Shown here in pieces: positions 1 to 27,721 of a DNA stretch of 48,105 nucleotides; within the stretch, counting starts at the first letter, position 1, and every line of letters begins with the position of its first letter. The stretch lies in the NCBI GenBank assembly GCA_015063305.1, contig SVUJ01000014.1:1-48105 (forward strand). Reading direction: 5' to 3'. The translations under genes were made by a program, and so were the position numbers. The notes under the pieces were generated by a model. The model searched no databases and had not been told where the DNA came from. It saw only the letters and a list, made by a program, of their open reading frames with translations. This DNA is from Oscillospiraceae bacterium. GTDB lineage: Bacteria > Bacillota > Clostridia > Oscillospirales > CAG-272.

Positions 1-136
1 GCGATTCGTGAATCGCCCCTACGGTTTTTGGGAACGTGTAATTCTTCTTGCATTTTCTTCCAAACCGTGCTATAATCATAATAGATCAACAGGGCCACAA
101 ACACCAAGACACAGAACCGTCCCCTGTCTTCAAAAA
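1..136 (+). repeat. Repeat module, copy 1 (right part only, cut by window edge)
   Basis: This is the right half of a module repeated in the first 4 kb. It contains the end of the GTAGGGGCGATTCGTGAATC-type palindrome, a promoter (TTGCAT at 48-53, 17 bp, TATAAT at 71-76) and the terminal segment ACACAGAACCGTCCCC near 110-126. The same order of parts occurs in copies 2, 3 and 4. Confidence 0.85.
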
Positions 137-421
137 TGGACTTGGGAAACTTTCTGCAAAAAATGGGTTTGGCAAACCTTCTGTAAGGATTGGATCGCAA
201 ACAAAGCATGGAATTGGTTCAATGGCGATAAATGGTATCAATCATTAGTTCGAAATCTTACAATTGGCGTAGTCGGTGGAATTGTCGGGGCATTGGCAGT
301 TTGGTTGATTCCGCTATTGAGCGCTTTCGCTGGAGCTACACTAGGAATTACTGTTTTAGGAGGTATTATAACGGGTATTATCGGTGGAATTGTTAGCTGG
401 CTCTACGATTTAATATCCTAA
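8..421 (+). CDS. Glycine-rich hydrophobic small protein, 5' end fused to the repeat (probably truncated)
   Basis: The frame is open from the left edge through the repeat module to a stop at 419-421. The part coded by unique sequence starts near 130. It has a Trp-rich stretch with an internal duplication (WETFCKKW, then WQTFCKDW), followed by two very hydrophobic glycine-rich segments resembling small membrane peptides or holin/bacteriocin-like proteins. No ATG with a ribosome-binding site lies in this frame after the promoter at 48-76, and the GTG at 8 is upstream of that promoter. The true 5' end is therefore probably lost or replaced by the repeat. The 62-residue two-helix protein begins 8 bases later and would be co-transcribed. 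The family is not recognised. Confidence 0.35.
   Translation: MNRPYGFWERVILLAFSSKPCYNHNRSTGPQTPRHRTVPCLQKWTWETFCKKWVWQTFCKDWIANKAWNWFNGDKWYQSLVRNLTIGVVGGIVGALAVWLIPLLSAFAGATLGITVLGGIITGIIGGIVSWLYDLIS
48..76 (+). promoter_or_regulatory. Sigma-A promoter inside repeat module 1
   Basis: TTGCAT (48-53) and TATAAT (71-76) are separated by 17 bp. The same promoter recurs almost base for base at 1410-1438 and 3550-3578, and with a few changes at 721-749. The repeat therefore supplies the promoter for whatever lies to its right. Confidence 0.7.
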
Positions 422-429
422 AAACAACT

Positions 430-618
430 ATGAAAAAAATAATCAAATCGTTTTTAATGATTTTTCCAGCAGTAATTATAGGATTTATTATTTTATCAAT
501 AACAAGCAGCTATGTTTTTTGGATTTTGTCAATAATTGCTACAGAAATAAGCATTGGGATTTTGGCAAATATTATCAAAGCAATTAACCTTCACAATAAC
601 AATCGAAATAAAAAGTAG
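430..618 (+). CDS. Small two-helix membrane protein
   Basis: A 62-residue protein with a basic N-terminus (MKKIIKSF), two hydrophobic helices (about 8-28 and 31-52) and a polar, basic C-terminal tail. It starts 8 bases after the preceding hydrophobic ORF, so the two probably share a transcript. Right after its stop, the end of repeat module 2 begins (GACAGAGGACGGTTCTCTGT). A small basic membrane protein directly behind a glycine-rich hydrophobic peptide is the layout of some peptide-bacteriocin immunity pairs, but nothing in the sequence proves that. The family is not recognised. Confidence 0.5.
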   Translation: MKKIIKSFLMIFPAVIIGFIILSITSSYVFWILSIIATEISIGILANIIKAINLHNNNRNKK

Positions 619-680
619 ACAGAGGACGGTTCTCTGTCTTGACAAATTGCTCTTCCCTGACACTTAAAAAGTAAATACTT

Positions 681-719
681 CTCCGCGGTTGTTTGAAACT
701 TTCAACCGCGGAGTTTTTT
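681..719 (+). terminator. Intrinsic terminator in repeat module 2
   Basis: An 11-bp perfect stem, CTCCGCGGTTG (681-691) with CAACCGCGGAG (703-713), followed by six T. The same hairpin recurs at 1247 and 3387, and a different stem sequence occupies the same slot at 4016. Confidence 0.85.
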
Positions 720-720
720 C

Positions 721-749
721 TTGCATTTTCTTCCAAAGTGTGTTATAAT
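721..749 (+). promoter_or_regulatory. Sigma-A promoter in repeat module 2
   Basis: TTGCAT (721-726) and TATAAT (744-749) with a 17-bp spacer. It starts one base after the T-tract of the terminator at 681-719, so the module both ends the upstream transcript and starts the next one. Confidence 0.65.
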
Positions 750-751
750 TA

Positions 752-1240
752 TTGCAAACCAAACAGGGCGACGAACGCCAAGACACAGAACCGTCCCCTG
801 TCTTTCCCGTTGGGACAACACCGATTGAATTGGAATACAATTTTCTACTTCCCGAAACAGAAATTACCTCGATAGAAATTGTTAAGCTTGGAATGTCCGA
901 ATATTGGTACAAGTCGCCCGAGGAACAATATTCTATTTGCAAAATTGAGGACACAACAGATTTTCTAAAGCAATTTTCGGAGGTGACTTGTTTTTTAAAT
1001 GTCGCTCCTCCAACAAAAGTGGAAGATGAATCAATCGTTTTCAAAATCTCTTACGGTGATGATTGCTATGAGTTAATAGGAGTAAATGGACAATCAAAAA
1101 TCCATTACGATCATTCCCCATTTGATGGTTACCGTTATTTTGAGGGACAACAATTTTCTCGCTTGATTGATTTGTACATTGAACAGAGATATAATGATAA
1201 AGAACACAGTCGACAGTTCTCTGTGTGCTATAAAAAGTAA
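752..1240 (+). CDS. Small soluble protein truncated at both ends by repeat modules
   Basis: The frame is open from a weak TTG at 752 to 1240. The first 18 or so codons lie in repeat module 2 and read ...DTEPSPVF, and the last 10 or so lie in module 3 and read ...QFSVCYKK. The unique core (about 806-1210) codes for roughly 135 polar, soluble residues with many acidic and aromatic side chains (for example IEIVKLGMSEYWYKSPEE). There is no ribosome-binding site or ATG at the 5' end. Both start and stop are therefore repeat-derived, and the unit looks like a gene fragment held between two modules. An internal ATG near 893 has no ribosome-binding site. The family is not recognised. Confidence 0.4.
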   Translation: MQTKQGDERQDTEPSPVFPVGTTPIELEYNFLLPETEITSIEIVKLGMSEYWYKSPEEQYSICKIEDTTDFLKQFSEVTCFLNVAPPTKVEDESIVFKISYGDDCYELIGVNGQSKIHYDHSPFDGYRYFEGQQFSRLIDLYIEQRYNDKEHSRQFSVCYKK

Positions 1241-1246
1241 ATACTT

Positions 1247-1285
1247 CTCCGCGGTTGTTTAAAACTTTCAACCGCGGAGTTTTTA
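1247..1285 (+). terminator. Intrinsic terminator in repeat module 3
   Basis: CTCCGCGGTTG (1247-1257) pairs with CAACCGCGGAG (1269-1279), followed by a run of T. It has the same stem as the terminator at 681. Confidence 0.85.
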
Positions 1286-1409
1286 TTGTATCTTTTGAGG
1301 TAATTTTATTCGTAGGGGCGATTCGTGAATCGCCCGTTTGGTTTGCCTGATTTTTGAGGCGGGCGCTTCGTGAATCGCCCCTACGGTTTTTGGGAACGTG
1401 TAATTCTTC

Positions 1410-1438
1410 TTGCATTTTCTTCCAAACCGTGCTATAAT
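1410..1438 (+). promoter_or_regulatory. Sigma-A promoter in repeat module 3
   Basis: TTGCAT (1410-1415), 17 bp, TATAAT (1433-1438). It faces the membrane protein that starts at 1538. Confidence 0.7.
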
Positions 1439-1537
1439 CATAATAGATCAACAGGGCGACGAACGCCAAGACACAGAACCGTCCCCTGTGTTCCCTAGTT
1501 GAAAGTAAGGTGTAATTTACGAATTGAGGAGGATTTT

Positions 1538-2017
1538 ATGTATAAGGAAGTCTATGAGGCGAAGCCTTTTTACGGAGTAAATCCTGCATTTGTGATATTT
1601 TGTGTAATAGCCGTTTTGATTACATTGATTCTTATTGCTTTTTGGAGAAAATTTGATATGGGAAGTCGCTTTTTCTTCTTGTTTATTTTGATCTTTTTCA
1701 TTTTCATAATTTCCTGTCAAGCGTACACATCCATTGACGCAAAACGCAAAGTGTATAATGCATATATTGCTGGCGAGTATCTCACAGTCCAGGGTGTAAT
1801 TTCTGATTATACACTTGCTGAGGAAGGACAGCCGAATTTACCGGATAGTTTTTATATTGATGGTGTAGAATTTTCTGTTCCTGGATTTGTAAGTGCTTGG
1901 GGATATCCGTTAAATCGTGTCAATGGCGGAATATTGGAAGATGGCATGTGCGTGAGAATTTGTTACATTCCCTACAAGTTTGAAAATGTTATTATGAAAA
2001 TTGAACAACTGGAGTGA
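1538..2017 (+). CDS. Small membrane protein with a C-terminal globular domain
   Basis: A 159-residue protein. The ATG at 1538 is chosen because GAGGAGG sits 6-8 bases upstream. Two hydrophobic helices (about residues 17-40 and 46-66) are followed by a soluble domain of about 90 residues rich in Gly, Tyr and acidic residues, containing a FYIDGVEFSVPG stretch. The topology suggests a membrane anchor with an extracytoplasmic domain, as in many small exported immunity-like or DUF proteins. I do not recognise the family. It is the first gene behind promoter 1410-1438 and, unlike its left neighbours, is intact, with its own start, ribosome-binding site and stop. Confidence 0.7.
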   Translation: MYKEVYEAKPFYGVNPAFVIFCVIAVLITLILIAFWRKFDMGSRFFFLFILIFFIFIISCQAYTSIDAKRKVYNAYIAGEYLTVQGVISDYTLAEEGQPNLPDSFYIDGVEFSVPGFVSAWGYPLNRVNGGILEDGMCVRICYIPYKFENVIMKIEQLE

Positions 2018-2035
2018 ATTCGTAAAAATCGTATT

Positions 2036-2150
2036 GCAAGCATCGCCTTTTGGGGACAAAAGGCAGGTTGTTGGGATAATCCCAGTCCCTTAAAGGTTTC
2101 AGGAATATTCCTGATAAGTCTGTGTTTGGGTGACCAAACGCGATGCTTGC
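2036..2150 (+). ncRNA. Putative structured RNA: closing stem enclosing four hairpins
   Basis: An 11-base perfect inverted repeat, GCAAGCATCGC (2036-2046) and GCGATGCTTGC (2140-2150), closes a 115-base segment. Inside are four hairpins: GCCTTTT/AAAAGGC (2045-2064, sharing two bases with the closing stem), TGGGA/TCCCA (2072-2084), the palindrome TCAGGAATATTCCTGA (2099-2114), and GTTTGG/CCAAAC with a GTGA tetraloop of GNRA type (2124-2139). A multi-branch junction with a GNRA loop is typical of a folded RNA or ribozyme-like element rather than a simple terminator, and no T-tract follows. It precedes the integrative-element remnant at 2294-2600. I do not recognise a known class. A DNA-level role, such as a recombination end, is the alternative. 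The strand is assumed from the neighbouring genes. Confidence 0.5.
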
Positions 2151-2220
2151 TGGTATAGTGCAATCTCATTCCCCTTATGGTAGGTGATTTGAAAAAAGTT
2201 TTAACCTTACGGTTACAAAA

Positions 2221-2291
2221 TTGCCTTTAAGTGAGGAAACAGTTGGAGGGTATTTATCCTCTAACTGTTACTCTCACGAAGAAGGAGGCAA
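2221..2291 (+). promoter_or_regulatory. Leader hairpin that can cover the ribosome-binding site of the small ORF at 2294
   Basis: A nested stem: TTGCCT (2221-2226) with AGGCAA (2286-2291), GTGAG (2231-2235) with CTCAC (2273-2277), and a 12-bp inner stem (2238-2249 with 2258-2269, one G-U pair). The outer stem takes up part of the Shine-Dalgarno GGAGG at 2284-2288, so translation of the downstream ORF could be controlled by folding. Function is inferred. Confidence 0.4.
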
Positions 2292-2293
2292 TT

Positions 2294-2491
2294 ATGCGTA
2301 AGGTCAAATTGATCATTCACGAAACCTTCCAAGGCAAACGCAAAACCGAAGATGTCTTTGCGGCAGTGTTTTTGTCAGACACTGCCTCATTGACTACGAA
2401 CACACATTCTGCTATAATAAAAGACACCGAACGATCTCAGGATTCACTTTGTTCCGAGAAAGGAGCAACTTATGGAACAAGTGAGGAATGA
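2294..2491 (+). CDS. Small ORF preceding an integrative-element serine recombinase (possible TnpW-type leader protein)
   Basis: A 65-residue protein with a strong ribosome-binding site (GGAGG at 2284-2288) and ATG at 2294. The first 35 or so residues (KVKLIIHETF, then EDVFAAVFLSDTA) look like a conserved small domain. The VFLSDTA motif resembles small proteins carried by Tn4451/Tn1549-type elements, which I name tentatively from memory. The second half is low complexity and may simply be read-through: a sigma-A promoter for the next gene lies inside it (2390-2418), and it overlaps the recombinase start by 20 bases. It belongs with the truncated recombinase as part of a degraded element. Confidence 0.5.
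   Translation: MRKVKLIIHETFQGKRKTEDVFAAVFLSDTASLTTNTHSAIIKDTERSQDSLCSEKGATYGTSEE
2390..2418 (+). promoter_or_regulatory. Promoter for the truncated serine recombinase
   Basis: TTGACT (2390-2395), 17-bp spacer, TATAAT (2413-2418), and a ribosome-binding site AAAGGAG at about 2459, just before the ATG at 2472. The promoter lies inside the preceding small ORF. Confidence 0.65.
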
Positions 2492-2693
2492 GCAAACCAT
2501 TTACAGTGCAGCAGTCTATTGCAGACTCAGCAAGGACGACGAGCAGGCAGGCGAAAGCATCAGTATTGAAACGCAAAAAATGATGCTGATGGATTTTTAT
2601 AAGGGATTTTGCATGGTTAAATATACTTGTATCTGTTTTCGCTTTATTGGGCTCGTATGTCGCTCTTGCAAAGTCAAAACTTATAAAGGATAA
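2472..2693 (+). pseudogene. N-terminal fragment of a large serine recombinase
   Basis: The first 43 or so residues match the start of TndX/TnpX-like large serine recombinases of clostridial integrative elements: AAVYCRLSKDD carries the catalytic Ser (residue 20), followed by GESISIETQKMML. A complete enzyme has more than 500 residues. Similarity stops near 2600, and the rest of the frame to 2693 is unrelated sequence ending at a chance stop. The catalytic domain is incomplete, so no activity is expected. It marks a past integration and deletion, with the right junction near 2600. Confidence 0.75.
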
Positions 2694-2784
2694 ATTCTCA
2701 AAAAACATTAATGATTATTCTTTTGATTTGTATAGCATTTTTTTAACTATATACTTTTTTGTCGATTTGTTTTTCTCTAAATGA
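2602..2784 (+). pseudogene. 3' fragment of a small membrane-protein gene behind the recombinase junction
   Basis: In the frame offset from the recombinase, 60 codons are open to TGA at 2782-2784 without a start codon. The peptide has two hydrophobic segments (LNILVSVFALLGSYVAL and YSIFLTIYFFVDLFF) around a Lys-rich loop. It looks like the tail of a membrane protein whose 5' end was lost when it was joined to the recombinase remnant. Confidence 0.35.
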
Positions 2785-2791
2785 TATAGTA

Positions 2792-2836
2792 CGGAAGACA
2801 GGGGACGGTTAGCGTGAAAACCGTCCTGGGAACACA
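2792..2836 (+). repeat. Degenerate repeat-module end
   Basis: GAAGACAGGGGACGGTT followed by a short spacer and AACCGTCCTGGGAACAC. These are the two inverted ends of the repeat module with its interior removed, so it now forms a short hairpin. It separates the membrane-protein remnant from the next ORF. Confidence 0.6.
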
Positions 2837-2852
2837 AAGAAAGGTTTAGAAT

Positions 2853-3269
2853 ATGAATAAATATAATGAACTTCTTAAAAATCAAATTTTGACTTCAGTT
2901 GTTGTAATTGTCTTGATCATTGTTTTAGCAATAATATTGTTTACACTTAACAAAAGACATTTTTTTGATGATCTCGGAAAAATTGGAAGAACTGTAGTTA
3001 ATCTATTTGTTGTTACAATCATATTACTTGCAGGTATTTATTTTTCTGTTCGAATACTACACTTATACCGAGATATACATGAACAAGCATATATAACATA
3101 TCATGGTAATTTTGAAGTAAGTCCATTCAAAGAAGGCTATGTAACATTGCGTGAGAAATCAGGTCACTTAAAACTTGATGGCAAAGTTGATTTGCCAGGC
3201 GGCCAATATTCTGGCACGATTGTTTATGCCCAAAATTCAAAGTATATTCTGGCCTGGAATGTTGAATAA
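2853..3269 (+). CDS. Small membrane protein with two helices and a soluble C-terminal domain
   Basis: A 138-residue protein with ATG at 2853 and AGAAAGG upstream. It has hydrophobic helices at about 12-32 and 45-67, then a soluble domain of about 65 residues including YHGNFEVSPFKEGYVTL and a GKVDLPGGQYSGTIVY stretch. The layout (two N-terminal helices, then a small extracytoplasmic domain) is like that of the 159-residue protein at 1538, though the sequences are not obviously alike. The gene has its own start, stop and terminator and appears intact. The family is not recognised. Confidence 0.65.
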   Translation: MNKYNELLKNQILTSVVVIVLIIVLAIILFTLNKRHFFDDLGKIGRTVVNLFVVTIILLAGIYFSVRILHLYRDIHEQAYITYHGNFEVSPFKEGYVTLREKSGHLKLDGKVDLPGGQYSGTIVYAQNSKYILAWNVE

Positions 3270-3279
3270 AATCATTTTT

Positions 3280-3314
3280 CTCCGCACTTCATTTTGAGGT
3301 GCGGAGTTTTTTTA
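3280..3314 (+). terminator. Intrinsic terminator after the 138-residue membrane protein
   Basis: CTCCGCACTTC (3280-3290) pairs with GAGGTGCGGAG (3296-3306, one G-U pair), followed by seven T. The design is the same as the module terminators, with a different stem. Confidence 0.85.
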
Positions 3315-3386
3315 TGACCGAAATAGTTCGCGGTGACGGAAGAAGACAGGGGACGCTTCTCTGTGTGCTATAAAAAGTAAATACTT

Positions 3387-3425
3387 CTCCGCGGTCGTTT
3401 AAAACTTTCAACCGCGGAGTTTTTA
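3387..3425 (+). terminator. Intrinsic terminator in repeat module 4
   Basis: CTCCGCGGT (3387-3395) pairs with ACCGCGGAG (3411-3419), followed by a T-run. Confidence 0.8.
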
Positions 3426-3549
3426 TTGTATCTTTTGAGGTGATTTTATTCGTAGGGGCGATTCACGAATCGCCCGTTTGGTTTGCCTGATTTTTGAGGC
3501 GGGCGATTCGTGAATCGCCCCTACGGTTTTTGGGAACGTGTAATTCTTC

Positions 3550-3578
3550 TTGCATTTTCTTCCAAACCGTGCTATAAT
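3550..3578 (+). promoter_or_regulatory. Sigma-A promoter in repeat module 4
   Basis: TTGCAT (3550-3555), 17 bp, TATAAT (3573-3578). It faces the small membrane protein at 3695. Confidence 0.7.
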
Positions 3579-3694
3579 CATAATAGATCAACAGGGCGAC
3601 GAACACCAAGACACAGAACCGTCCCCTGTCTTCCCCGTTGATCGTTTTGATAAAGACGGAAAGAGTGGGTATATTCGTTTTTGAGGTGTTAAAC

Positions 3695-3949
3695 ATGAAC
3701 AAAAAGAACGTCGGTCTGGCAATTATAATCGTATTCGTGTTAATTAGTGCTCTGCTTTTATTAGTTAAACAGTTCAGCCTTTCTGTGGCAAAGTGTTTGA
3801 TGTATAATTGTTTAGGGACATTTTGTATCCTTATTTGGAGTTCTTTTGTTCCAGTGTCTAAAATGCGAAGAAGGGTAGTTTCGGCATTTCTGTGGTATTG
3901 GCTCTTTTGGTATGCGCTTTTTTCTTCTGTAAAAGTGTTGATAACATAA
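3695..3949 (+). CDS. Small three-helix membrane protein
   Basis: An 84-residue protein. The ATG at 3695 is preferred over an upstream ATT/TTG because GAGGTG lies 7 bases before it. Three hydrophobic segments (about 7-25, 32-50 and 60-80) are separated by short basic loops (KMRRR). It sits alone between repeat modules 4 and 5, behind the module 4 promoter. The family is not recognised. Confidence 0.55.
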   Translation: MNKKNVGLAIIIVFVLISALLLLVKQFSLSVAKCLMYNCLGTFCILIWSSFVPVSKMRRRVVSAFLWYWLFWYALFSSVKVLIT

Positions 3950-3968
3950 CAATTTCAGCGTAACACAG

Positions 3969-4056
3969 GGTAACACAGGGGACGGTTCTCTGTGTGCTAT
4001 AAAAAGTAAATACTTCTCCACACTTGGACTTAAACTTTCAAGTGTGGAGTTTTTTC
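3969..4056 (+). repeat. Repeat module, copy 5 (left part only)
   Basis: It begins with ACAGGGGACGGTTCTCTGTG and the shared segment CTATAAAAAGTAAATACTTC, then a terminator with a different stem (4016-4056). The palindromic part, promoter and right end are absent, so this marks the right border of the array. Confidence 0.8.
4016..4056 (+). terminator. Intrinsic terminator at the right border of the array
   Basis: CTCCACACTTG (4016-4026) pairs with CAAGTGTGGAG (4039-4049), followed by TTTTTT. Confidence 0.85.
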
Positions 4057-4073
4057 TTTTAAAAAAACTTTTT

Positions 4074-4100
4074 AAACCCTGACAATATCTGTCAGGGTTT
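4074..4100. promoter_or_regulatory. Perfect 11-bp dyad upstream of the DNRLRE-like gene
   Basis: AAACCCTGACA (4074-4084), 5-bp spacer, TGTCAGGGTTT (4090-4100). A TATAAT follows at 4106-4111, so it could be an operator overlapping a promoter. A weak terminator is the alternative. A second dyad, TGTCAAG/CTTGACA, lies around 4117-4136. Confidence 0.4.
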
Positions 4101-4222
4101 GCTTTTATAATAGAGATGTCAAGCTATTTCTTGACACTAAAAAACAAAAGGAGGTAATTAAAATAAACCCTATAATTCAAAAAACAAACTCTATTTTCGG
4201 CGATCCCGACGCGTCACCCGAG

Positions 4223-5308
4223 ATGAACGCCAGATACCCCTACCGCCTTCTCTACCAAAAGGACGGAATATATTCGGCGTACTATTTCAGCGTGCCGATA
4301 TACAACAGGACGGCTGACACTTTGGTGTCGCCTCACTTTTCTGAAAAAGAGGGTGGGGCAGAGTTTCTTGGCTCTAACGCCAAGATAACGCTTGGAGAGG
4401 ATATCCTTATGGAGAACCCGAAGGGCAAATGTCGGATCTCGATGCCCTCGGGGTATAGATACGAAAGTGATGAGCTGATAAGCTACGATGGTATTGAGCT
4501 ATATCCCACTCTCAACGGCGTTGCCTGTATAGCGAAAGCGGAAGAGAAAAGAAAGCACACCTTCCGAATATCAACAGATGCACCGCTTTCCCACGTAAGC
4601 GGTAATCAAAAATGCTTTTGCACTATGCTCAGCGCCATCGAGCCGCACCTGAGCATTTCCTGCATCGGCTCGCTTGACAAAGAGAGGGAGCTGATATCCC
4701 CTGCCTATATTCAATATAGAAGGATAGAAGCAGACGAATTTGAAGTGAGTGTATGCACCGACTCGCCGAACGCCGAGTATCTTTTCTTTGAGATGAATCT
4801 GCACACCCCCAAGCTCTTTCTTGACACCACGGTGGAAACCAGATATCCCGACAAAAACAACGCCTTCGGCACAGTCGCTTTTATCGGAGAAACTCAGGAG
4901 TTCGGCGAGGAACGCCTCTTTTGCCGTCCGCTGCTTATGAGCCTTGGAGGTCTCAGAGACGCGGATATCGAGAGCGCAGCTATGTATATCCCCAAACTCG
5001 ATGGCGGCAGCTCCCTTTTGGCGGCGCACCGCCTTACCGCAAGATTTTGCAGCTTCGCCTCAAATTGGAACAACCAAAAGCCCTCCGCGTACAAGTATGT
5101 CTCCTCCGAGATCAAAAACGGCTACCACCGCATTGACGTAACCAATATGATAATCAAAAATCAAGAGATATCAAAATACGCCGAGGGGTGGATGCTCAGA
5201 GTCTCTCCCGAACACAAAGGGCTGTGTGTTATATCGACAGCAGACAGCTTTTTTGCCCCCCAAATACTCGAAATAACTTTCAGGAAAAATCTTTTGAATA
5301 ATTATTGA
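4223..5308 (+). CDS. Possible DNRLRE/carbohydrate-binding-type surface protein
   Basis: A 361-residue protein from the first ATG. The C-terminal 125 or so residues (RPLLMSLGGL, DIESAAMYIPKL, YHRIDVTNMI, GWMLRVS) have the pattern of DNRLRE-type beta-sandwich domains. The N-terminal part (GYRYESDELI, YDGIELYPTL) is beta-rich and unassigned. No signal peptide is visible. A strong ribosome-binding site, AGGAGG (4149-4154), stands at ideal distance from an in-frame ATA at 4163, 60 bases upstream of this ATG. The codons between are open, and no ribosome-binding site precedes the ATG at 4223. The natural start may therefore be a mutated or non-canonical codon, giving 381 residues. The gene stands alone. 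Confidence 0.65.
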   Translation: MNARYPYRLLYQKDGIYSAYYFSVPIYNRTADTLVSPHFSEKEGGAEFLGSNAKITLGEDILMENPKGKCRISMPSGYRYESDELISYDGIELYPTLNGVACIAKAEEKRKHTFRISTDAPLSHVSGNQKCFCTMLSAIEPHLSISCIGSLDKERELISPAYIQYRRIEADEFEVSVCTDSPNAEYLFFEMNLHTPKLFLDTTVETRYPDKNNAFGTVAFIGETQEFGEERLFCRPLLMSLGGLRDADIESAAMYIPKLDGGSSLLAAHRLTARFCSFASNWNNQKPSAYKYVSSEIKNGYHRIDVTNMIIKNQEISKYAEGWMLRVSPEHKGLCVISTADSFFAPQILEITFRKNLLNNY

Positions 5309-5328
5309 CAAATAATTGTCAATATATC

Positions 5329-5360
5329 TTGACAAAGTAGGATTTTTATGGTAGTATAAT
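5329..5360 (+). promoter_or_regulatory. Probable hppA promoter
   Basis: TTGACA (5329-5334) and TATAAT (5355-5360), with a long 20-bp spacer. The region just upstream is rich in TTGACA/TGTCAA copies (5304-5334), which could pair as dyads. Confidence 0.4.
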
Positions 5361-5421
5361 GTGTGCACGTTTAACTATTTGGGTGCATTTTTTATACTTT
5401 AAGCAAATTTGGAGGAAATTT

Positions 5422-7506
5422 ATGGAACTTTGGTTGGTTCTTCTTACCTTCGGAGCTGCACTTTTGGCGCTCTTGTTCGCAGCATTCACCGCGCGCAAGG
5501 TGCTCAAGTTCTCTGAGGGAACCGATTTGATGAAGAAGATATCTTTGTCTATACGCAAAGGCGCAAACGCATTTTTGAAGCGTCAGTATAGAATAGTTCT
5601 GGTCTTCTTCGGCATTATGTTCGCAATTCTCGGAGTTATGGCTATATTCGGTCTTTTAACTCCTTTCGTGCCCTTCGCGTTCCTCACGGGCGGATTCTTC
5701 TCGGCTCTTTCGGGCTTTATAGGAATGAAGATCGCTACCGCTTCAAATGCGAGAACGGCAAACGCTTGTCAGGAGGGTCTTAACCGCGGTTTGAGAATAG
5801 CATTCTCGGCAGGAAGCGTTATGGGCTTCACCGTTGTCGGTCTTGGACTTCTCGATATCTCACTTTGGTTCTTCCTTCTCAAGTTCGTATTTGGTCTTGA
5901 GGCTGCCGAAATAACAGCGGCTATGCTTACCTTCGGAATGGGCGCATCCTCGATGGCTCTCTTCGCTCGTGTTGGCGGCGGTATCTTCACCAAGGCGGCT
6001 GACGTTGGAGCAGACCTTGTTGGTAAGGTTGAGGCAGGAATTCCTGAGGACGACCCCCGTAACCCCGCCGTTATCGCAGATAACGTTGGTGACAACGTTG
6101 GTGACGTTGCAGGTATGGGAGCTGACCTTTACGAGTCCTACGTTGGCTCTGTGATCTCGGCTTGCGCACTCGGAGTTGCAGCATTTGGCGGATTCTCCGC
6201 TATGGCGCTCCCCATGCTCCTTGCGGCTCTCGGAGTTGTATGCTCTATCCTCGGAACATTCCTTGTAAGGACCAAAGAGGGCGCAACTCAGAAGCAGCTT
6301 CTCGGCTCTCTTGCAAGAGGAACTAACTTCTCTGCTATAGTTATCGCAATACTTTCCTTCCCGCTCGTTTACTTCGTGCTCGGACAGGAAAATTGGCCTA
6401 TGTATTTCGCTATCCTCGCGGGACTTATCGCGGGTGTGCTTATAGGTCAGGCTACAGAGTACTTCACCTCTGACAGCTATAAGCCCACAAGGGGTCTTGC
6501 GGCTACCTCTGAAACCGGTACGGCTACCATAATCATCGGCGGTCTTTCGGTTGGTATGATGTCCACTCTTCTTCCTATAGTTATAATAGCTATATGCGTT
6601 CTCGTTGCATTCTTCGTATCGGGCGGAGCCCAAAGCGCGTCTATGGGACTTTACGGTATAGCTCTTGCGGCAGTTGGAATGCTTTCAACTCTTGGAATCA
6701 CTCTCGCAACCGACGCTTACGGTCCTGTTGCCGACAACGCGGGCGGTATCGCTGAGATGGCTGGTCTTGACAAGAAGGTAAGAGAGCGTACAGATGCGCT
6801 CGACTCTCTCGGAAACACCACTGCAGCTACAGGTAAGGGCTTTGCTATAGGCTCTGCGGCTCTCACAGCTCTCGCACTTATGGCTTCCTACATAGATAAG
6901 ATAAAGACTATCGACGGCGGCGCTGAGAAGATAGCAGACCTCAGCATAACCAATCCCACCGTTCTTGTTGGTCTTTTCGTTGGAGCTTGCTTGCCCTTCA
7001 TATTCGCGGCTCTCACAATGAACTCTGTTGGCCGTGCGGCTCAGAGCGTTGTAAGAGAGGTTCGCCGTCAGTTCAAGGAGATCAAGGGCCTTATGGAAGG
7101 CGAGGCAGAGGCAGACTATGCAAGCTGTGTTGACCTTTGTACAAAGGCAAGTCTTCGCGAGATGATATTCCCCACTATCGTTGCTGTTGCAGTTCCTGTT
7201 ATTGTAGGACTTGTTCTCGGTTGCACAGGCGTTGTTGGTATGCTCGCAGGCGCTACAGTTTCGGGATTCCTTATGGCAGTATTTATGTCCAACTCGGGCG
7301 GAGCTTGGGACAACGCTAAGAAGTATATTGAGAGCGGTGTTCACGGTGGAAAGGGCTCTGATTGCCACAAGGCAGCAGTTGTTGGAGATACTGTTGGCGA
7401 CCCCTTCAAGGACACCTCAGGACCCTCTATCAACATTCTCATAAAGCTTCTTTCGATGGTATCGATAGTATTCGCAAGCATCGTTGTAGCTTTCTCGATC
7501 CTTTAA
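5422..7506 (+). CDS. hppA: K+-dependent membrane-bound pyrophosphatase (ion-pumping)
   Basis: A 694-residue polytopic membrane protein that hydrolyses cytoplasmic pyrophosphate and pumps H+ or Na+ out. Start ATG 5422 follows GGAGG. The catalytic signatures are intact: [11 protein letters not shown] (about 193-203), the Asp-rich loop beginning [13 protein letters not shown] and ending MGADLYESY (about 209-239), [30 protein letters not shown], and a C-terminal [14 protein letters not shown]. Ala468 in [10 protein letters not shown] occupies the position that is Lys in K+-independent enzymes, so this is the K+-stimulated subclass. H+ versus Na+ specificity cannot be settled by eye. It is monocistronic, with a strong terminator behind it. 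Confidence 0.95.
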
Positions 7507-7525
7507 TTGAAGATTAAAAAGGCAA

Positions 7526-7558
7526 AACCGCCACCCGAATCGGGTGGCGGTTGTTTTT
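7526..7558 (+). terminator. hppA terminator
   Basis: ACCGCCACCCG and CGGGTGGCGGT form an 11-bp stem with a 3-base loop, followed by TTGTTTTTCT. Confidence 0.9.
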
Positions 7559-7743
7559 CTATTCTATGTTTTGCTTACTTTACGGGAGGAGCAAGCCCCT
7601 CCCCTACCATTTTGGTGATGTTGGTTTTTCTGTTTTGTGTTTTGCTTATTTTTTATTTTACGGGAGGGGAAACCCCTCCCGCACCATTGAGCAATACAAA
7701 CCGACTATAGCAAAAAATAGTTTGAAAAGATTTGGAGAGGGTC
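7559..7743. repeat. Intergenic low-complexity and repeat remnants
   Basis: It contains two tandem-like copies of a segment of about 75 bp with GGGAGGAGCAAGCCCCTCCC and GGGAGGGGAAACCCCTCCC hairpins and the words GTTTTGCTTATTTTT. Related words recur near 20870-20960, 40890-40970 and 47590-47690. No convincing gene. Confidence 0.6.
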
Positions 7744-7776
7744 AAGGGAGAACCTTTCCTTAAAAGGTTCTCCCTT
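7744..7776. terminator. Bidirectional terminator between hppA and the coat-protein genes
   Basis: AAGGGAGAACCTTT pairs with AAAGGTTCTCCCTT around a short loop. Almost the same hairpin occurs at 33119-33151. Confidence 0.8.
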
Positions 7777-7790
7777 GCCGCATCCCCTAT

Positions 7791-8048
7791 TCAATTCCCT
7801 GCGAACTGCTGCTTTGCGGCGTTTACCTTGGTATCCTCCGCCTTTTCTGTCTTATACCAGCCCTTGGCTGACATCTCGGTAAAGAGCTCGTTCTGGATAC
7901 TGTGCTCGTCGGTCAGTATCCCCGAAAGACAGCTCATCACCGCCGAGGTCTCGCTTTCAGCCAAAAAGGTGTTATAAGCGGACGCCATATGCTTTTCACA
8001 GTTGAGAAGATCGGTCATTTTTGCCTTTTCATCAAATACGTTCTGCAT
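7791..8048 (-). CDS. CotF-like spore coat protein
   Basis: An 85-residue protein of the CotF/ferritin-like four-helix coat family. The pattern DLLNCEKHMASAYNTFLAESE, then LTDEHSIQNELFTEMSAKGWY, is typical: a helix with CEKxxxxxYN, a central DEHxIQ helix, and a C-terminal GWY motif followed by a polar tail. Family members coat the spore. ATG at 8048 with AAGGAAG upstream. It lies 27 bases downstream of a second small coat-like gene and is probably co-transcribed in the mother cell. Confidence 0.75.
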   Translation of the reverse strand: MQNVFDEKAKMTDLLNCEKHMASAYNTFLAESETSAVMSCLSGILTDEHSIQNELFTEMSAKGWYKTEKAEDTKVNAAKQQFAGN

Positions 8049-8075
8049 AATTCAACTAAGCTTCCTTTCAAAAAA

Positions 8076-8261
8076 TCATTTTAAATTGGATACGAGCTGG
8101 TCGTAGTGACGCTGGTGTCTGCACGCAAGCTGCTCGTATTTTGCGCCCAGAGCGCTATCCTGACTCTCTGTGGCGAACTGCTTGTATTTAGCTATTATAG
8201 TCTGCTCCATAGTAAGCAGATCGGAAAGTCCGCTCAGTTCTTTTGACGTTATCTGTGCCAT
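8076..8261 (-). CDS. Small coat-associated CotF-like helical protein
   Basis: A 61-residue protein starting at ATG 8261, chosen because GGAGG lies 8 bases upstream. An upstream ATG at 8279 has none. It is wholly helical: SGLSDLLTMEQTIIAKYKQFA, a short turn, then LGAKYEQLACRHQRHYDQLVSNL. The His/Glu-rich pattern is that of half a ferritin-like bundle. It is the upstream gene of a two-gene unit with the CotF-like protein, so a role in the spore coat is inferred from context. Confidence 0.7.
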   Translation of the reverse strand: MAQITSKELSGLSDLLTMEQTIIAKYKQFATESQDSALGAKYEQLACRHQRHYDQLVSNLK

Positions 8262-8377
8262 CGTTATATCCTCCTGCAATAATATGCTTTTATTTTATCC
8301 AAATACAGGATTATTATGCGAAAATTTAAAAGGAAAAGCGGACGCGCCGTACTAGGACGAATTATATACTGAAGAAT

Positions 8378-8420
8378 AAAACCCCCCGACAGAGCTTGAA
8401 GCTCTGTCGGGGGGTTTTTA
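8378..8420. terminator. Bidirectional terminator behind the YfcC carrier gene
   Basis: A 14-bp perfect stem, CCCCCCGACAGAGC (8382-8395) with GCTCTGTCGGGGGG (8401-8414), flanked by A-rich and T-rich tracts. Confidence 0.9.
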
Positions 8421-8461
8421 TTTTTAGAAAATTTTATCACTCTTTTATTCTTACACCGACA

Positions 8462-9865
8462 TCAATACCCAACGGCAAGTCCGAAAAGCAGGAGAGCCGA
8501 GGTGAGGATAAGGTTGAGCGTCTGGAACTTCCAGCTCCACCTGAACCACTCTACATAGCTTGTCTTCGCAAGCCCAAGGCTTATGAGAAGCGCGGGGTTG
8601 GTGGGATAGAATGCGTTTGAAAATCCATCGCCAAAGGCAAACGCCAGAATACAAAGCTGGGTCGATATTCCGAATATCTGCGCTATCGGCACGATAAGCG
8701 GTATGAGCATAAACGCCTTTGCCGAGCCCGACGGAATAAAGAAGTTCATCACGAGCACTATAAGATACACAAAAAGTATCACCGACCACTTGGGCATAGC
8801 CTCGGCAAGTCCGACTGCTCCGTGAAGTATGGTGTCGAGCACGTTCGCCTCCTCGAGCGTGTACTTTATCGAGGACGCCATAAGTATCATCGCCACCGCG
8901 GGCAGAATGCTTACAACTCCGTCAAGCGAGGTCTTTCCGAGGGCTGCGGGCCTCATTCCCGAAACCAGCACCGACACGATACCCGCAACAAGGAACATCA
9001 CCGCAACTATTATCATCGTGTAATCCTGAAGAGATGGGATAAATCCCGAGCAGAGTATCGTCACGATACCAACTCCAAGTATTACCGCAAAGCAGATAAG
9101 CGCCTTGTCCATCTGAGGAGAGGGAGTGAATTTTTCAGCCTTGGTGTCAAGCTCCACAGGCCTTTCTATCTTCTTAGCGTAAAAATAGAGGAAGCCCAAA
9201 AGAAGAAAATATATACAAACAAAGGAAAGCGCTCTCATCCAAGCACCCGAGAACATCGGAAGTCCCGCAAGCTGCTGCGCCACTCCGACCGTAAAGGGAT
9301 TGCAGACTCCCGCCGCAAAGCCACAGCCAACGGCAAGCAGGCTCATTCCTATGCCCACAAGGGCGTTCCAGCCGAGGTTTATCGCAAGAGCAACGACTAT
9401 CGGAACGAGCGGCACACACTCCTCAAAAGACCCGACCAACGAGCCGAGCGCCATAAAGAAGAGCACGGTAAATGCCATAAGTCTGTAGCGCACGCCGCCA
9501 AAGCGGTGCGCTATCCTGTCGAGCATATATTTGATAAGTCCGCATCGCTCAAGGCTGTTGAAAACTCCGCCGATGACGAGCAGAAAAGCGATGACCGCTA
9601 TCAGCGCTCCGCTTCCCGACGCGCCAAGCACGAGTATCGGCGAGAGAAGCCATTTCCAGAAGGGTATCCCACCCTCCCTGTAGGAAAATCCGCCGTCGGT
9701 ATTGATGACGGTGTTGCCGCTTGCGTCCTCAATTCGCTCGTAAGTGCCGCCGGGGATAACGAGCGTTAGCACGTACGCGGCTATCATCAGCGCGAAGATA
9801 ACTATTATGGCGGTTATAAAGGACTTGACGCCAATATTAAGTCCGCCCTTTTCATTATCCTTCAT
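8462..9865 (-). CDS. YfcC-family (C4-dicarboxylate/basic amino-acid type) carrier
   Basis: A 467-residue integral membrane protein with about 12 helices, of the YfcC/DcuC/ArcD-like family. Visible family features are the N-terminal helix ending LTLVIPGGTYER, a soluble loop (SYREGGIPFWKWLLSP), the GSFEECVPLVPI motif in a re-entrant region, MNFFIPSGSAKAFMLIPLI, and the C-terminal GDGFSNAFYPTNPALL. The substrate is unknown; members move dicarboxylates, arginine/ornithine or other amino acids. Its ATG overlaps the end of the M20 peptidase gene by 11 bases, so the two are translationally coupled. This suggests it imports the peptidase substrate or carries its product. Confidence 0.88.
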   Translation of the reverse strand: MKDNEKGGLNIGVKSFITAIIVIFALMIAAYVLTLVIPGGTYERIEDASGNTVINTDGGFSYREGGIPFWKWLLSPILVLGASGSGALIAVIAFLLVIGGVFNSLERCGLIKYMLDRIAHRFGGVRYRLMAFTVLFFMALGSLVGSFEECVPLVPIVVALAINLGWNALVGIGMSLLAVGCGFAAGVCNPFTVGVAQQLAGLPMFSGAWMRALSFVCIYFLLLGFLYFYAKKIERPVELDTKAEKFTPSPQMDKALICFAVILGVGIVTILCSGFIPSLQDYTMIIVAVMFLVAGIVSVLVSGMRPAALGKTSLDGVVSILPAVAMILMASSIKYTLEEANVLDTILHGAVGLAEAMPKWSVILFVYLIVLVMNFFIPSGSAKAFMLIPLIVPIAQIFGISTQLCILAFAFGDGFSNAFYPTNPALLISLGLAKTSYVEWFRWSWKFQTLNLILTSALLLFGLAVGY

Positions 9866-11189
9866 TTTGCACCTCCGTTATGATGTATCTGTAAAAGTCA
9901 ACGGCAGGAGCGAGAGTATCGATCGAAACGTTTTCGTCTATACCGTGTACGCTGTCAAGCTGAGCGTCGTCTATAATAAAGGGGGTGAAGCGCAGACAGT
10001 TGTCGCTCACGCGGCTCATATAACGGCAGTCGCTCGCCCCCGTCATTACGTAGGGAGAGGTCCTGACCTGCGGGTATACCGCGCCCACCGCGCGCTCAAC
10101 GAGCGCGAACGCCGCGCTCTTATGGTCGGACAGCCCCGACTGTATTCCCCTGTCAAGCACCACCGTTTCGATATCGAATTTCTCGGCAAGTGCGGCTATC
10201 TCGGCAATACTGTCCTCTGCCCCCTGATGGTGGGAATATCTCATATTTCCGATCACCCACGCCTCCTGCGGCAGAACGTTCGTTCCCTCAGAGCCCGATG
10301 CCATCGTAAATGCTACCGTGGTCTTGAGCATAGCACCCGCCGCTACCGACACCGAGGGGATAACTCGGCAGAGTATGGGTGAAAAGAGCTTTGGGTGACC
10401 CAAGATCGGCTTCAGCGCGCCGCTCATAGAGTCCGATATCGCGCGGAACATAGCGCATACCGTGGGAGATATCTCGGCGCGGAAAAGGTTGTTTTTCTCA
10501 ACTGCCGCCATAAATTTTCCAAGTCTTACTAAGGGTGTGTCCTTCGGCGGGGTCGAGGCGTGACCGCCCGCAGACCTTGCGATAAATTTCAGGTCGGCGC
10601 TGCCCTTCTCGCCAACTCCTATCATGGCATAGTTTCCCTTCGCTCCGCCGATAGGCTCGTTTATTATCATTCCGCCCTCGTCGAGCACCATAAAAAAGCG
10701 AATTCCTCGCTCGACAAGCGCCGACGATATAGCGTCAGAGCCAGCGCCGCTTGTCTCCTCGTTACAGCTTGAAATGAAGTATACATCGCGCGTTGGTGTG
10801 AATCCTTCCGCGGCAAGCTCGTCAGCCGCCTGAAGCATCGCCCAAAGACCGCCCTTCGTATCGAGCGCTCCGCGCCCAAAAAGCTTGCCGTCGGCTATCT
10901 CACCCGAAAAGGGAGGGTAGCTCCACGCGCCCGACGCCTCGACCACGTCGTGGTGGTTCATAAGCATTATCGGCTGGAGCTGGGGGTTCGTTCCTTTCCA
11001 TCTGAGCAGGATACTGCCGTCAAAATCCTCAAAGTCCGCTACCGAAAAGAGGCTCGGAAAGAGCTGTCTTAACAGCTCGTGAAAGCGGTAAAATTTAGTT
11101 TTATCCTGTTCTCCCTTAGCTGACACAGTTTCGCTCTGTATCATAAGAGATAAACGCTCGGCGTATTTTTCGGTTCTCTGGTCTGACAT
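9855..11189 (-). CDS. M20-family metallopeptidase (carboxypeptidase/aminoacylase type)
   Basis: A 444-residue cytoplasmic di-zinc hydrolase. The metal ligands are in place: NHHDVVEA (His and Asp), GRGALDTKG (bridging Asp), CNEETSGAG (catalytic Glu and ligand Glu), LDEGG, and a C-terminal ligand near GIDENVS. The dimerisation domain spans about 190-330, with the GHASTPP motif before it. The closest style is the PM20D1/carboxypeptidase S branch, which releases amino acids from peptides or N-acyl amino acids. It is the first gene of an operon with the YfcC carrier, from a perfect promoter at 11240-11268. The exact substrate is unknown. Confidence 0.88.
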   Translation of the reverse strand: MSDQRTEKYAERLSLMIQSETVSAKGEQDKTKFYRFHELLRQLFPSLFSVADFEDFDGSILLRWKGTNPQLQPIMLMNHHDVVEASGAWSYPPFSGEIADGKLFGRGALDTKGGLWAMLQAADELAAEGFTPTRDVYFISSCNEETSGAGSDAISSALVERGIRFFMVLDEGGMIINEPIGGAKGNYAMIGVGEKGSADLKFIARSAGGHASTPPKDTPLVRLGKFMAAVEKNNLFRAEISPTVCAMFRAISDSMSGALKPILGHPKLFSPILCRVIPSVSVAAGAMLKTTVAFTMASGSEGTNVLPQEAWVIGNMRYSHHQGAEDSIAEIAALAEKFDIETVVLDRGIQSGLSDHKSAAFALVERAVGAVYPQVRTSPYVMTGASDCRYMSRVSDNCLRFTPFIIDDAQLDSVHGIDENVSIDTLAPAVDFYRYIITEVQNEG

Positions 11190-23768: not shown

Positions 23769-23812
23769 AGATTTATCTCCTTCCAAGAGAGCTGAATTGG
23801 GTTTCTTCCTAA

Positions 23813-23841
23813 ATTATACCATAATTTATACCTTTTGTCAA
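23813..23841 (-). promoter_or_regulatory. Promoter of lipoprotein paralogue 1
   Basis: Minus-strand TTGACA (23841-23836), 17 bp, TATAAT (23818-23813). Confidence 0.8.
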
Positions 23842-23865
23842 TCGTTTCTCTTGGCGAGGCGGGGG

Positions 23866-24105
23866 TCGGCAGTGCCGACAGCCAAGCTTCGGGGCAGTCC
23901 GCCTTAATCAATTATTCCCACTCGACGGTGAAGTTTTGTTTTATTATAGGCTCGCCCTTTCGGTAGCGAAGCGGCGCGAGCGTAATGAATGACACCACAG
24001 TGCGGTGTCATTCATTGCGCTCACGCCGCTTCGCTACCTCGACGCCCCGAGAAACAAACATTACAATTTAATTTCACCTCAACAGTGGGGCTTTGCTCTA
24101 TTAAA
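23866..24105. repeat. Intergenic repeats: GTCGG type plus long GTAGCGAAGCGGCG palindrome
   Basis: 23866-23925 repeats the GTCGG...AGTCCGCCTTAATC element. From about 23961 to 24040, GTAGCGAAGCGGCGCGAGCG is followed by the inner dyad GACACCACAGTGCGGTGTC and then its full inverse, making a near-perfect palindrome of about 80 bp. Single-armed versions are at 27756 and 47789. Confidence 0.7.
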
Positions 24106-24227
24106 GGCTCCCTTGTGTAAAGGGAGCTCCCGCGATAGCGGGTGAGGGATTGTTTGTTCTTTTAATATTATTTTACAATCCCTCCGTCACGGCGTTGCCG
24201 CGCCACCTCCCTTTACACAAGGGAGGC
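24106..24227. repeat. Palindromic interspersed repeat, GGCTCCCTTGTGTAAAGG type, copy 1
   Basis: 122 bp. Inverted ends GGCTCCCTTGTGTAAAGGGA and TCCCTTTACACAAGGGAGGC. Inside are CCCGCGATAGCGGGTGAGGG and AATCCCTCCGTCACGGCG. The size and ends are those of a MITE, and it codes for no protein. Confidence 0.8.
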
Positions 24228-24309
24228 TTTTTGTAAGACAATCCGTCCGTAATTTTTATTCGTAGGGGTCGCGTCCGATTTTCTATTTTATTTCTTGCTT
24301 ATTTATTCA

Positions 24310-24804
24310 TTATCTTAAAATCCCTTTTGCCATCTCCTCCGCCTTTTCGGCATCGGGGGCTATCACCATCACCGTGTACTTCCCTTTGACGCAGACGGCC
24401 GAATTCCGAGCAATATCGGCATATTCCGTACCCCTCAACAAAACGCTGAGCGCGTCTGCTCTCCCGAGACAGAGCGCCGCTACGCTGTCGCTGTCCGACG
24501 ATGAATAGCATTTGAATACGGCAACCTCATACGGCGCGCCCGCGGCGCACAGATATATCGAATATTCCTCAATCAATTCAAAAACATCCTTTGCGTTCGA
24601 CCCATACATCACGCTCATCGTGTCGGAAGGAAGCTCTCGCAAGGACGTGCCCTCTTTGCCGCAGCAATACATCTGCCCCACGGGAAGCTTTAGCTCGTCG
24701 CACAGACGCAGGGCGATATCCTCGCAGCTTTTTTGCTCACTCAGGCAGGAGGATAACAGCAGAACGCAGAGCCCCAGCGCCAAAATTTTGTGAACTCTTT
24801 TCAT
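24310..24804 (-). CDS. Small lipoprotein, probably DUF4358
   Basis: A 164-residue exported protein: signal peptide with lipobox LLSSC (Cys20), then a domain containing YEVAVFKCYSSSDSDSVAALCLGRADAL, ARNSAVCVKGKYTVMVIAPDAEKAEEMAKGIL. The pattern "AVFK, Ser/Asp-rich helix, VxVKGKYxxxVxxPDxxKAEE" is that of DUF4358 lipoproteins common in Clostridia, whose function is unknown. Several extra Cys (for example YCCGKEG) are unusual for this family. It lies between the two divergent metallo-beta-lactamase lipoproteins, inside the segment bounded by their inverted repeat. Confidence 0.7.
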   Translation of the reverse strand: MKRVHKILALGLCVLLLSSCLSEQKSCEDIALRLCDELKLPVGQMYCCGKEGTSLRELPSDTMSVMYGSNAKDVFELIEEYSIYLCAAGAPYEVAVFKCYSSSDSDSVAALCLGRADALSVLLRGTEYADIARNSAVCVKGKYTVMVIAPDAEKAEEMAKGILR

Positions 24805-24899
24805 TTTCTTCTCCCCTCTTTTTTATTTTAATGATATGTGGCAAACATCTCAAATAGGCTTACAAAAGGGATAAAGGGTAGGGAAATTTTCTTCCCTTA

Positions 24900-24929
24900 T
24901 TGACAAGTCCTCTCTTTTTATGATACAAT
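24900..24929 (+). promoter_or_regulatory. Promoter of lipoprotein paralogue 2
   Basis: TTGACA (24900-24905), 18 bp, TACAAT (24924-24929). A strong AGGAGGAGA ribosome-binding site precedes the ATG at 24968. Confidence 0.75.
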
Positions 24930-24967
24930 ATCACCAATAGTTTTAATCTGTCACAGGAGGAGAGATC

Positions 24968-27673: not shown

Positions 27674-27688
27674 ATCAGAACACACAAA

Positions 27689-27721
27689 CAGCCCCTCGGC
27701 AGAACCGAGGGGCTGTTTGTG
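27689..27721 (+). terminator. Terminator of lipoprotein paralogue 2
   Basis: CAGCCCCTCGG (27689-27699) pairs with CCGAGGGGCTG (27705-27715), followed by TTTGTG. Confidence 0.85.

What the first reader, a model, noticed from the sequence alone, without database searches (positions are those of the whole stretch)
1..4056. Array of small-gene cassettes separated by portable terminator-promoter modules
Five copies of one repeat module (some partial) divide the first 4 kb into short units that each hold one or two small ORFs, mostly two- or three-helix membrane proteins unrelated to each other. Each complete module stops the upstream transcript (hairpin plus T-run) and restarts transcription (17-bp-spaced sigma-A promoter) for the next unit. 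That is the logic of a cassette array: any fragment that lands between modules is expressed at once. It is not an integron by the motifs I can see. This is the strongest candidate here for an undescribed arrangement. Seen: module sequence, order, promoters, terminators. Inferred: that cassettes are gained and exchanged.
Basis: partly seen in the sequence, partly recalled or inferred. Interest (0 to 1): 0.75.

Follow-up and report, generated by a model that had tools for sequence, protein, structure and literature searches.

The report
Insulated array of orphan immunity-like genes
Leftover pieces of what look like bacterial toxin–immunity gene pairs sit in a row in this genome, each boxed in by a repeated DNA module built on transposon ends that carries a stop signal for the gene before and a start signal for the gene after, so old immunity genes may each stay switched on.

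Summary
Five module copies divide window 1–4056, with real terminator hairpins and 17-bp-spaced promoter-like sites. The array starts at a contig edge and probably continues from contig C13; further units lie on C12, C3 and C15. The module is composite: its ends are inverted repeats (ACAGGGGACGGTTCTCTGT) that elsewhere bracket a Y1/RAYT-type transposase gene; inside are a terminator, usually a GTAG-type REP doublet, and a promoter. The repeats are scattered in other Clostridia; the terminator and promoter parts were found only at these five loci. One unit copies the 3' end of an intact polymorphic-toxin-like gene plus its downstream gene (705 bp, 95%). Another is a cut relative (27% over 88 residues) of a lipoprotein gene in an RHS toxin array. 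The rest are mostly small membrane proteins or lipoproteins. Best reading: displaced toxin-tail/immunity remnants, insulated one by one by a lineage-specific terminator–promoter module. An integron is unlikely: the two tyrosine recombinases found lie elsewhere. Orphan immunity arrays are known; insulating each unit with transposon ends was not found in the papers searched. Immunity function, expression and exchange between strains are untested.

The parts
1..127 (+). module copy 1, right part: half of the GTAG-type REP doublet (about 1-24), promoter 48-76, leader, L cap 109-127
   Evidence: the left half is probably the end of contig C13 (21-nt exact overlap)
128..421 (+). unit 1: 97-codon open tail without start codon, glycine-rich and hydrophobic; end of a lost gene, toxin-like by inference only
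   Evidence: open from cap to stop, P 0.002 in 500 first-order Markov resamples; no match in the 195 other relatives searched
430..618 (+). unit 1: 62-aa membrane protein, immunity-like by position only
619..801 (+). module copy 2: R cap 619-637, terminator 681-713, promoter 721-749, L cap 783-801; no REP doublet
803..1204 (+). unit 2: 134 open codons; N-terminally cut relative of a lipoprotein-like gene in an RHS array of another genus
   Evidence: 27% over 88 residues to L260:4777-5250; E 2.9e-6 and 4e-7 in very small search spaces
1206..1489 (+). module copy 3, complete: R cap 1206-1224, terminator 1247-1279, REP doublet about 1311-1386, promoter 1410-1438, L cap 1471-1489
1538..2017 (+). 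unit 3: 159-aa membrane protein (DUF4131, just below Pfam cut-off)
   Evidence: relatives in 12 of 294 other family genomes
2231..2690 (+). remnant inside unit 3: small ORF and a piece that looks by eye like the N-terminus of a large serine recombinase
   Evidence: translations; no Pfam or NCBIfam match for 2472-2690
2798..2826 (+). variant R cap ACAGGGGACGGTTAGCGTGAAAACCGTCC inside unit 3
   Evidence: sequence
2853..3269 (+). unit 3b: 138-aa membrane protein, followed by its own terminator 3280-3306
   Evidence: relative in L259 (E 4e-12); terminator
3346..3629 (+). module copy 4, complete: R cap 3346-3364, terminator 3387-3419, REP doublet about 3450-3525, promoter 3550-3578, L cap 3611-3629
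3631..3949 (+). unit 4: 17-codon open tail (3631-3684) and 84-aa membrane protein (3695-3949)
   Evidence: the tail alone is not significant
3975..4049 (+). module copy 5, left part: R cap 3975-3993 and terminator 4016-4049 of another stem type; end of the array

Best explanation
The region is one end of a dispersed set of displaced toxin-immunity remnants. A resident polymorphic-toxin-like locus (contig C13: Rv2525c-like protein, 743-aa Big_2 protein with an exchangeable C-terminal domain, 198-aa membrane protein) is followed by units that keep the 3' end of a lost gene and/or a small membrane protein or lipoprotein, most likely its immunity gene. The units are separated by a module whose outer ends are the inverted repeats of a Y1/RAYT-type (TIRYT) element, with a terminator, usually a GTAG-type REP doublet, and a promoter inside. 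The module ends one unit's transcript and starts the next, so each orphan gene is its own transcription unit. Shown: module anatomy, its link to a transposase family, the copy of one unit at a second site, low GC, homologies of some units. Inferred: immunity function, promoter activity, the origin of the cap-to-gene joins by insertion plus adjacent deletion or by illegitimate recombination, and recombination between module copies.
For: The C15 unit is the last ~22 codons of the C13 toxin-like gene plus its downstream gene (705 bp, 95%) joined to terminator, promoter and L cap. The C-terminal domain of the C13 protein also ends a Big_2 protein of the same genus (G004) and RHS proteins of two other genera (G155, G252), each followed by a small gene; RHS identity is over the NCBIfam cut-off in G252 and partial in G155. 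The N-terminus is kept (43-60%) while the C-terminus differs in two further G004 genes, G076 and G355. Unit 2 is related to a gene in the G252 RHS array, and units 3 and 3b have relatives two genes apart in a small-gene island of G140. GC is 28-37% in 10 of 11 captured units and 39.4% in the eleventh, C3u2, against 4 of 344 background 500-bp windows at or below 36.6%. Caps bracket a Y1_Tnp gene in L110 (PF01797, E 2e-14), L207 and G149, and diverged caps do in G276. 19 of 23 cap places in the genome (up to 2 mismatches) lie at the five loci; reversed-pattern control 2 hits. Terminator covariation.
Against: No unit protein got a Pfam or NCBIfam name that points to immunity. Unit 2 lacks a start codon. 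Tails are convincing only for unit 1, unit 2 and C15; units 3 and C12u2 have none of note. In the 16 loci read, relatives of unit 3 and C13u2 mostly have no toxin-like gene beside them, judged by eye in about 1.5 kb. The unit 1 tail matched nothing in 195 other relatives. The toxin domain in G252 is split over two frames. The genome shows no cap-type transposase. The lead toxin-like gene itself has 45.7% GC. The toxin-domain model failed (pLDDT 36).
Confidence: 0.6

Rival explanations
1. Transposon litter: non-autonomous TIR elements that happened to carry a terminator and promoter inserted repeatedly into a decaying toxin island; the units are debris without selected function.
For: Caps are dispersed repeats that in other Clostridia often lie beside ordinary genes. 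Unit 2 has no start codon. A recombinase-like remnant lies in unit 3. No cap-type transposase was found in the genome.
Against: In the modules read the order is always terminator before promoter, gene-ward; terminators keep pairing through compensatory change; 10 of 11 units keep a small ORF with its own start; 0 of 11 doublets elsewhere hold terminator plus promoter.
Confidence: 0.27
2. A dedicated integron-like cassette system in which units are captured and exchanged by site-specific recombination at the cap.
For: Cap-flanked units; one apparently empty promoter-cap-terminator unit on C12; one unit present at two loci.
Against: The two tyrosine recombinases found are at C3:24577 and C21:1340, not beside an array. 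At least the C15 unit and unit 2 begin inside genes. The caps match the ends of a Y1-transposase element and are mostly met as tight R-L doublets.
Confidence: 0.06
3. Cassettes of small antimicrobial peptides rather than immunity genes.
For: Unit 1 tail is glycine-rich and hydrophobic, with a non-significant match to Bacteriocin_IIc (E 0.25).
Against: That match is at chance level; most units encode 84-207-aa membrane proteins or lipoproteins, and some have relatives in an RHS array or a small-gene island.
Confidence: 0.05

Closest known systems
rAID systems of Bacteroidales (passages of PMC12247911 seen)
   Same: Row of co-oriented, low-GC, short genes with conserved intergenic sequence motifs; orphan immunity by inference here.
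   Different: No tyrosine recombinase beside the array; the intergenic module carries terminator, promoter and transposon ends; toxin tails remain.
Heterogeneous polyimmunity loci (passages of PMC3482391 seen)
   Same: Same-strand row of mostly unrelated immunity-like genes.
   Different: The passages describe tight, probably polycistronic loci, never interrupted by toxin cassettes and usually one per organism; here units are insulated, a toxin tail is kept and there are several loci.
Displaced effector/immunity arrays of Vibrio cholerae T6SS (abstract start and passages of PMC5361080 seen)
   Same: Displacement leaves effector 3' ends and immunity genes behind.
   Different: A word search of that text gave 0 hits for promoter and terminator and one unrelated hit for repeat.
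Tandem T7SS immunity genes of firmicutes (passages of PMC9484751 seen)
   Same: Immunity gene clusters that change by recombination between repeated blocks.
   Different: Paralogues of one family with homology inside and after the genes; here unrelated genes and a separate module.
TIRtrons/TIRYT repeats and REPINs (passages of PMC3733652 and PMC6006769 seen)
   Same: RAYT-like gene flanked by terminal inverted repeats; repeats dispersed as dimers; GTAG-type REP doublets. Published TIR motif GGGGWSAS differs from GGGGACGG at one position.
   Different: The passages seen do not describe them as terminator-promoter adapters or as flanks of immunity genes.

Membership tests
Integron / gene-cassette array | integrase gene next to the array | tested here: not met
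   PF00589 finds two genes, C3:24577 (about 29 kb from the C3 units) and C21:1340; assembly 94.6% complete
Integron / gene-cassette array | attC sites and one complete ORF per cassette | tested here: inconclusive
   no attC tool used; C15 unit and unit 2 start inside genes
rAID | tyrosine recombinase upstream of the array | tested here: not met
   none seen by eye among listed ORFs of L032 or window 1-9000
rAID | two or more co-directional genes with GC below 41% | tested here: met
   window units all on the + strand; 11 of 11 captured units measured 28.2-39.4% GC
rAID | short genes of about 100-300 codons | tested here: inconclusive
   small ORFs range from 62 to 298 codons; two in the window (62 and 84) are shorter
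rAID | conserved intergenic sequence motifs | tested here: met
rAID / polyimmunity locus | genes are functional immunity genes | not testable with these tools
   only homology and position
Polyimmunity locus | short gaps, likely polycistronic, no toxin cassettes between | tested here: not met
   terminator and promoter between units; toxin tail in the C15 unit
Polymorphic toxin (C13 lead gene) | conserved N-terminus with exchangeable C-terminal domains | tested here: met
   in the set compared, two kinds of C-terminus
Polymorphic toxin (C13 lead gene) | C-terminal domain is toxic and neutralised by the downstream product | not testable with these tools
   needs co-expression
TIRYT/RAYT-derived non-autonomous element | ends match the inverted repeats that flank a Y1 transposase gene | tested here: met
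   L110, L207, G149, diverged in G276
TIRYT/RAYT-derived non-autonomous element | cognate transposase in the same genome | tested here: not met
   two Y1 genes of another kind; the cap-type query finds none in G000

The most novel reading that the evidence does not exclude
A transposon-end doublet has been turned into a portable transcription adapter: whatever toxin-immunity remnant lies next to it is cut off from its old operon and given its own promoter and terminator, and near-identical adapters at five loci let units be copied between them. This would be an insulated, modular store of immunity against past toxins in Clostridia, built without a recombinase gene in the array.
Probability: 0.35. 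Interest if true: 0.72.

Novelty: new variant of a known kind. Interest (0 to 1): 0.5.

Why it matters
Orphan immunity arrays are described in Bacteroidales, Vibrio and firmicutes, but how a displaced immunity gene stays expressed once its toxin operon is gone is not obvious. Here each unit has its own stop and start signals at its edges, built on the ends of a transposable element. If they work, this gives a concrete mechanism and a DNA signature for finding insulated immunity stores in other genomes.

Tried and rejected
Known RNA family in the module: Rfam gathering search of window 1-8000 gave 0 matches. tRNA-linked island: 0 tRNA genes in the window. Module as a REPIN of the genome's own RAYTs: fits only the middle part. 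Terminator-promoter modules as a general feature of cap doublets: of 11 R-L interiors of 60-450 nt, 3 had a terminator-like site on either strand, 0 a promoter-like site. Caps as markers of small-gene cassettes in general: of 18 L-to-R intervals of 150-3000 nt, about 6 hold a 142-330-aa membrane protein or lipoprotein by eye, the others other genes. Unit 1 tail: no match in 195 other relatives. Cassette proteins against loci then held: best match outside this genome E 0.028. Toxin-domain structure: useless model, no fold search made; PDB profile search gave one chance-level row. Literature: motif search 18 (8 papers, none relevant by title) and searches (15 of 160 listed) showed no description of such a module; this covers only the open-licence library, and for 61 only the listed rows.

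The openness test is flawed for unit 4 and perhaps C3u1, where the longest frame runs into the small ORF itself; its pooled P is not used, and its null is a first-order Markov resample. The C-terminus comparison left out the G087 and G046 genes through my filter; those were read by eye only.
Full report
What is there. The window is contig C6:1-48105 of a genome of 1,579,298 bases in 22 contigs, 94.6% complete. It is unnamed; a genome of the same family, G096, shares a contig end with a Clostridia bacterium record (L080 against L189). The first 4 kb hold five copies of a module, two complete (1200-1495, 3340-3635; 96% identical) and three partial. A complete module reads: R cap (ACAGGGGACGGTTCTCTGT or variants), terminator hairpin with T-run, GTAG-type REP doublet, promoter, L cap (the inverted form). 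The four terminators of the window fold strongly. A pattern search over the array stretches gave 13 terminators, 11 distinct, in three stem types, with two-sided compensatory change at 4 of 11 stem positions; one of the 11 breaks one pair. Eleven module promoters have a 17-bp spacer and TG before the -10, which is TATAAT in 10 and TACAAT in one; the -35 is TTGCAT in 8, TTGCAA in 1 and TTGACA in the 2 of C3.

Where else in the genome. With the 296-nt module as query G000 has 52 matches at E up to 0.001 (40 of 56 first-look candidates scored). Rows covering the terminator (query 31-85) or promoter (205-240) part lie only on C6, C13, C12, C15 and C3. The middle part (about 101-200) is scattered over many contigs; it is a GTAG-tagged hairpin doublet, and the genome has two Y1_Tnp genes that did not match the cap-type transposase in a script search. 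C13 ends and C6 begins inside a module with a 21-nt exact overlap, so they are probably neighbours; the overlap lies in a repeated palindrome, so this is inference. In the genus, 15 of 30 genomes including the own match the module (list cut and for some genomes only 25 candidates scored); among the rows listed, other genomes match the REP part, except one 26-nt L-cap match in G020.

What the caps are. In the own genome the cap pattern with up to 2 mismatches has 23 distinct places, 19 of them at the five loci; the others are C5:5264, two on C4 and one on C19; the reversed control pattern has 2 hits. The pattern without mismatches occurs in 11 of 295 family genomes including the own, 8 of 71 genera. 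In the 120 stretches (caps with up to 3 mismatches) R-then-L neighbours are under 150 nt apart in 52 of 66 cases; L-then-R neighbours are under 150 nt in 0 of 22, the closest at 209.

In L110 the R and L caps bracket a 250-aa Y1 transposase gene (PF01797 E 2e-14). A script search with that protein over the loci then held gave nine open frames. Set against the cap lists, L110 and L207 (Sedimentibacter saalensis; one cap with 3 mismatches) are bracketed, L167, L176 and L100 have a cap close by or overlapping, and L192, L220, L212 and L193 have none within about 700 nt. In the family 5 of 295 genomes match this transposase. In G149 it is bracketed by caps, in G276 by diverged caps (4 mismatches); in G039 it is cut short between two caps of the same sense; in G223 a C-terminal piece lies beside caps; G207, a weak match, was not examined. 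This fits TIRYT elements (passages of PMC3733652 and PMC6006769).

What lies between. C13 has a lead locus: an Rv2525c-like protein (27.1 bits, cut-off 27.2), a 743-aa protein with six Big_2 repeats and a 198-aa membrane protein. The C-terminal domain of the 743-aa protein matches 4 of 295 genomes including the own: a Big_2 protein of G004 (same genus), a partial RHS protein at a contig start of G155, and an RHS protein of G252, where the domain is split over two frames; each has a small gene downstream. RHS core is over the NCBIfam cut-off in two G252 frames and below it in G155. The N-terminal 91 aa match 62 of 147 genomes, but many of these are probably just Big_2 repeats; the strongest matches (45-60% identity) are in G087, G046, G004, G355, G076 and G031. 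In the genes compared by script, one G004 gene shares the lead's C-terminus, while two other G004 genes, G076 and G355 have another kind. That is the hallmark of polymorphic toxins.

The C15 unit is a 705-bp copy (95%) of the last codons of the lead gene plus the following gene, joined to terminator, promoter and L cap, and ends in an R cap that runs into what is by eye the rpmH promoter region. Unit 2 is related over 88 residues (27%) to a 158-aa lipoprotein-like gene in the RHS region of G252 and lacks its N-terminus. Units 3 and 3b have relatives within about 1 kb of each other in a small-gene island of G140 without caps. Unit 3 relatives occur in 13 of 295 genomes and C13u2 relatives in 6 of 295, own included; in the 16 loci read most stand without a toxin-like gene beside them. 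The C12 units and C3u1 look by eye like lipoproteins. Ten of 11 captured units have 28-37% GC and C3u2 39.4%; the background mean is 48.7%. In other genera, small membrane proteins or lipoproteins also lie next to caps in G109 and G142, so the association may not be confined to this species even though the terminator-promoter module was not found elsewhere.

How it most likely works. RNA polymerase starts at the module promoter, reads the L cap, any leftover 3' end of a lost gene and the small gene, then stops at the next terminator; the REP doublet between stop and start (-49 kcal/mol as RNA) may add insulation. In C15 and unit 2 the cap joins a gene at an internal point, which suggests element insertion followed by adjacent deletion, or illegitimate recombination during displacement, not site-specific capture. 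Near-identical modules at several sites could then support homologous exchange. Shown: anatomy, covariation, transposase link, one copied unit, some homologies. Inferred: expression, immunity, exchange.

Compared with the known. Closest are rAID arrays, heterogeneous polyimmunity loci and displaced effector/immunity arrays. The array works like these but fails rAID's recombinase test and the polycistronic, toxin-free description of polyimmunity loci. The distinct element is one-by-one insulation by a terminator-promoter module with transposon ends; 0 of 11 similar doublets elsewhere have it. Literature searches showed no description of it in the open library.

Noticed in passing
window 21051-32459: Three long related lipoprotein-like frames (921, 908 and 965 codons); the first two are inverted to each other and share a 674-nt stretch at 99%.
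   Followed up: no
window 2231-2690: Small ORF plus a piece that looks by eye like the N-terminus of a large serine recombinase, inside unit 3.
   Followed up: partly
L031 about 10279-10345 (C12): Apparently empty unit: the module promoter runs directly into a near-perfect palindromic cap and a terminator.
   Followed up: partly
L033 about 6200-7190 (C15): A unit sits between what look like an ABC transporter gene and rpmH; a stretch like AGAAAAAACTCTTGACAAA is present on both sides of it.
   Followed up: no
L064 (C10:31129-31337): REP-type matches overlap and follow one of the genome's Y1 transposase genes.
   Followed up: no
L261 and L295 (G004:C12): Three Big_2 toxin-like genes with similar N-termini within about 10 kb; one C-terminus of the C13 kind, two of another kind.
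   Followed up: partly
window 5359-7506: Large membrane protein that looks by eye like a membrane pyrophosphatase; not searched.
   Followed up: no
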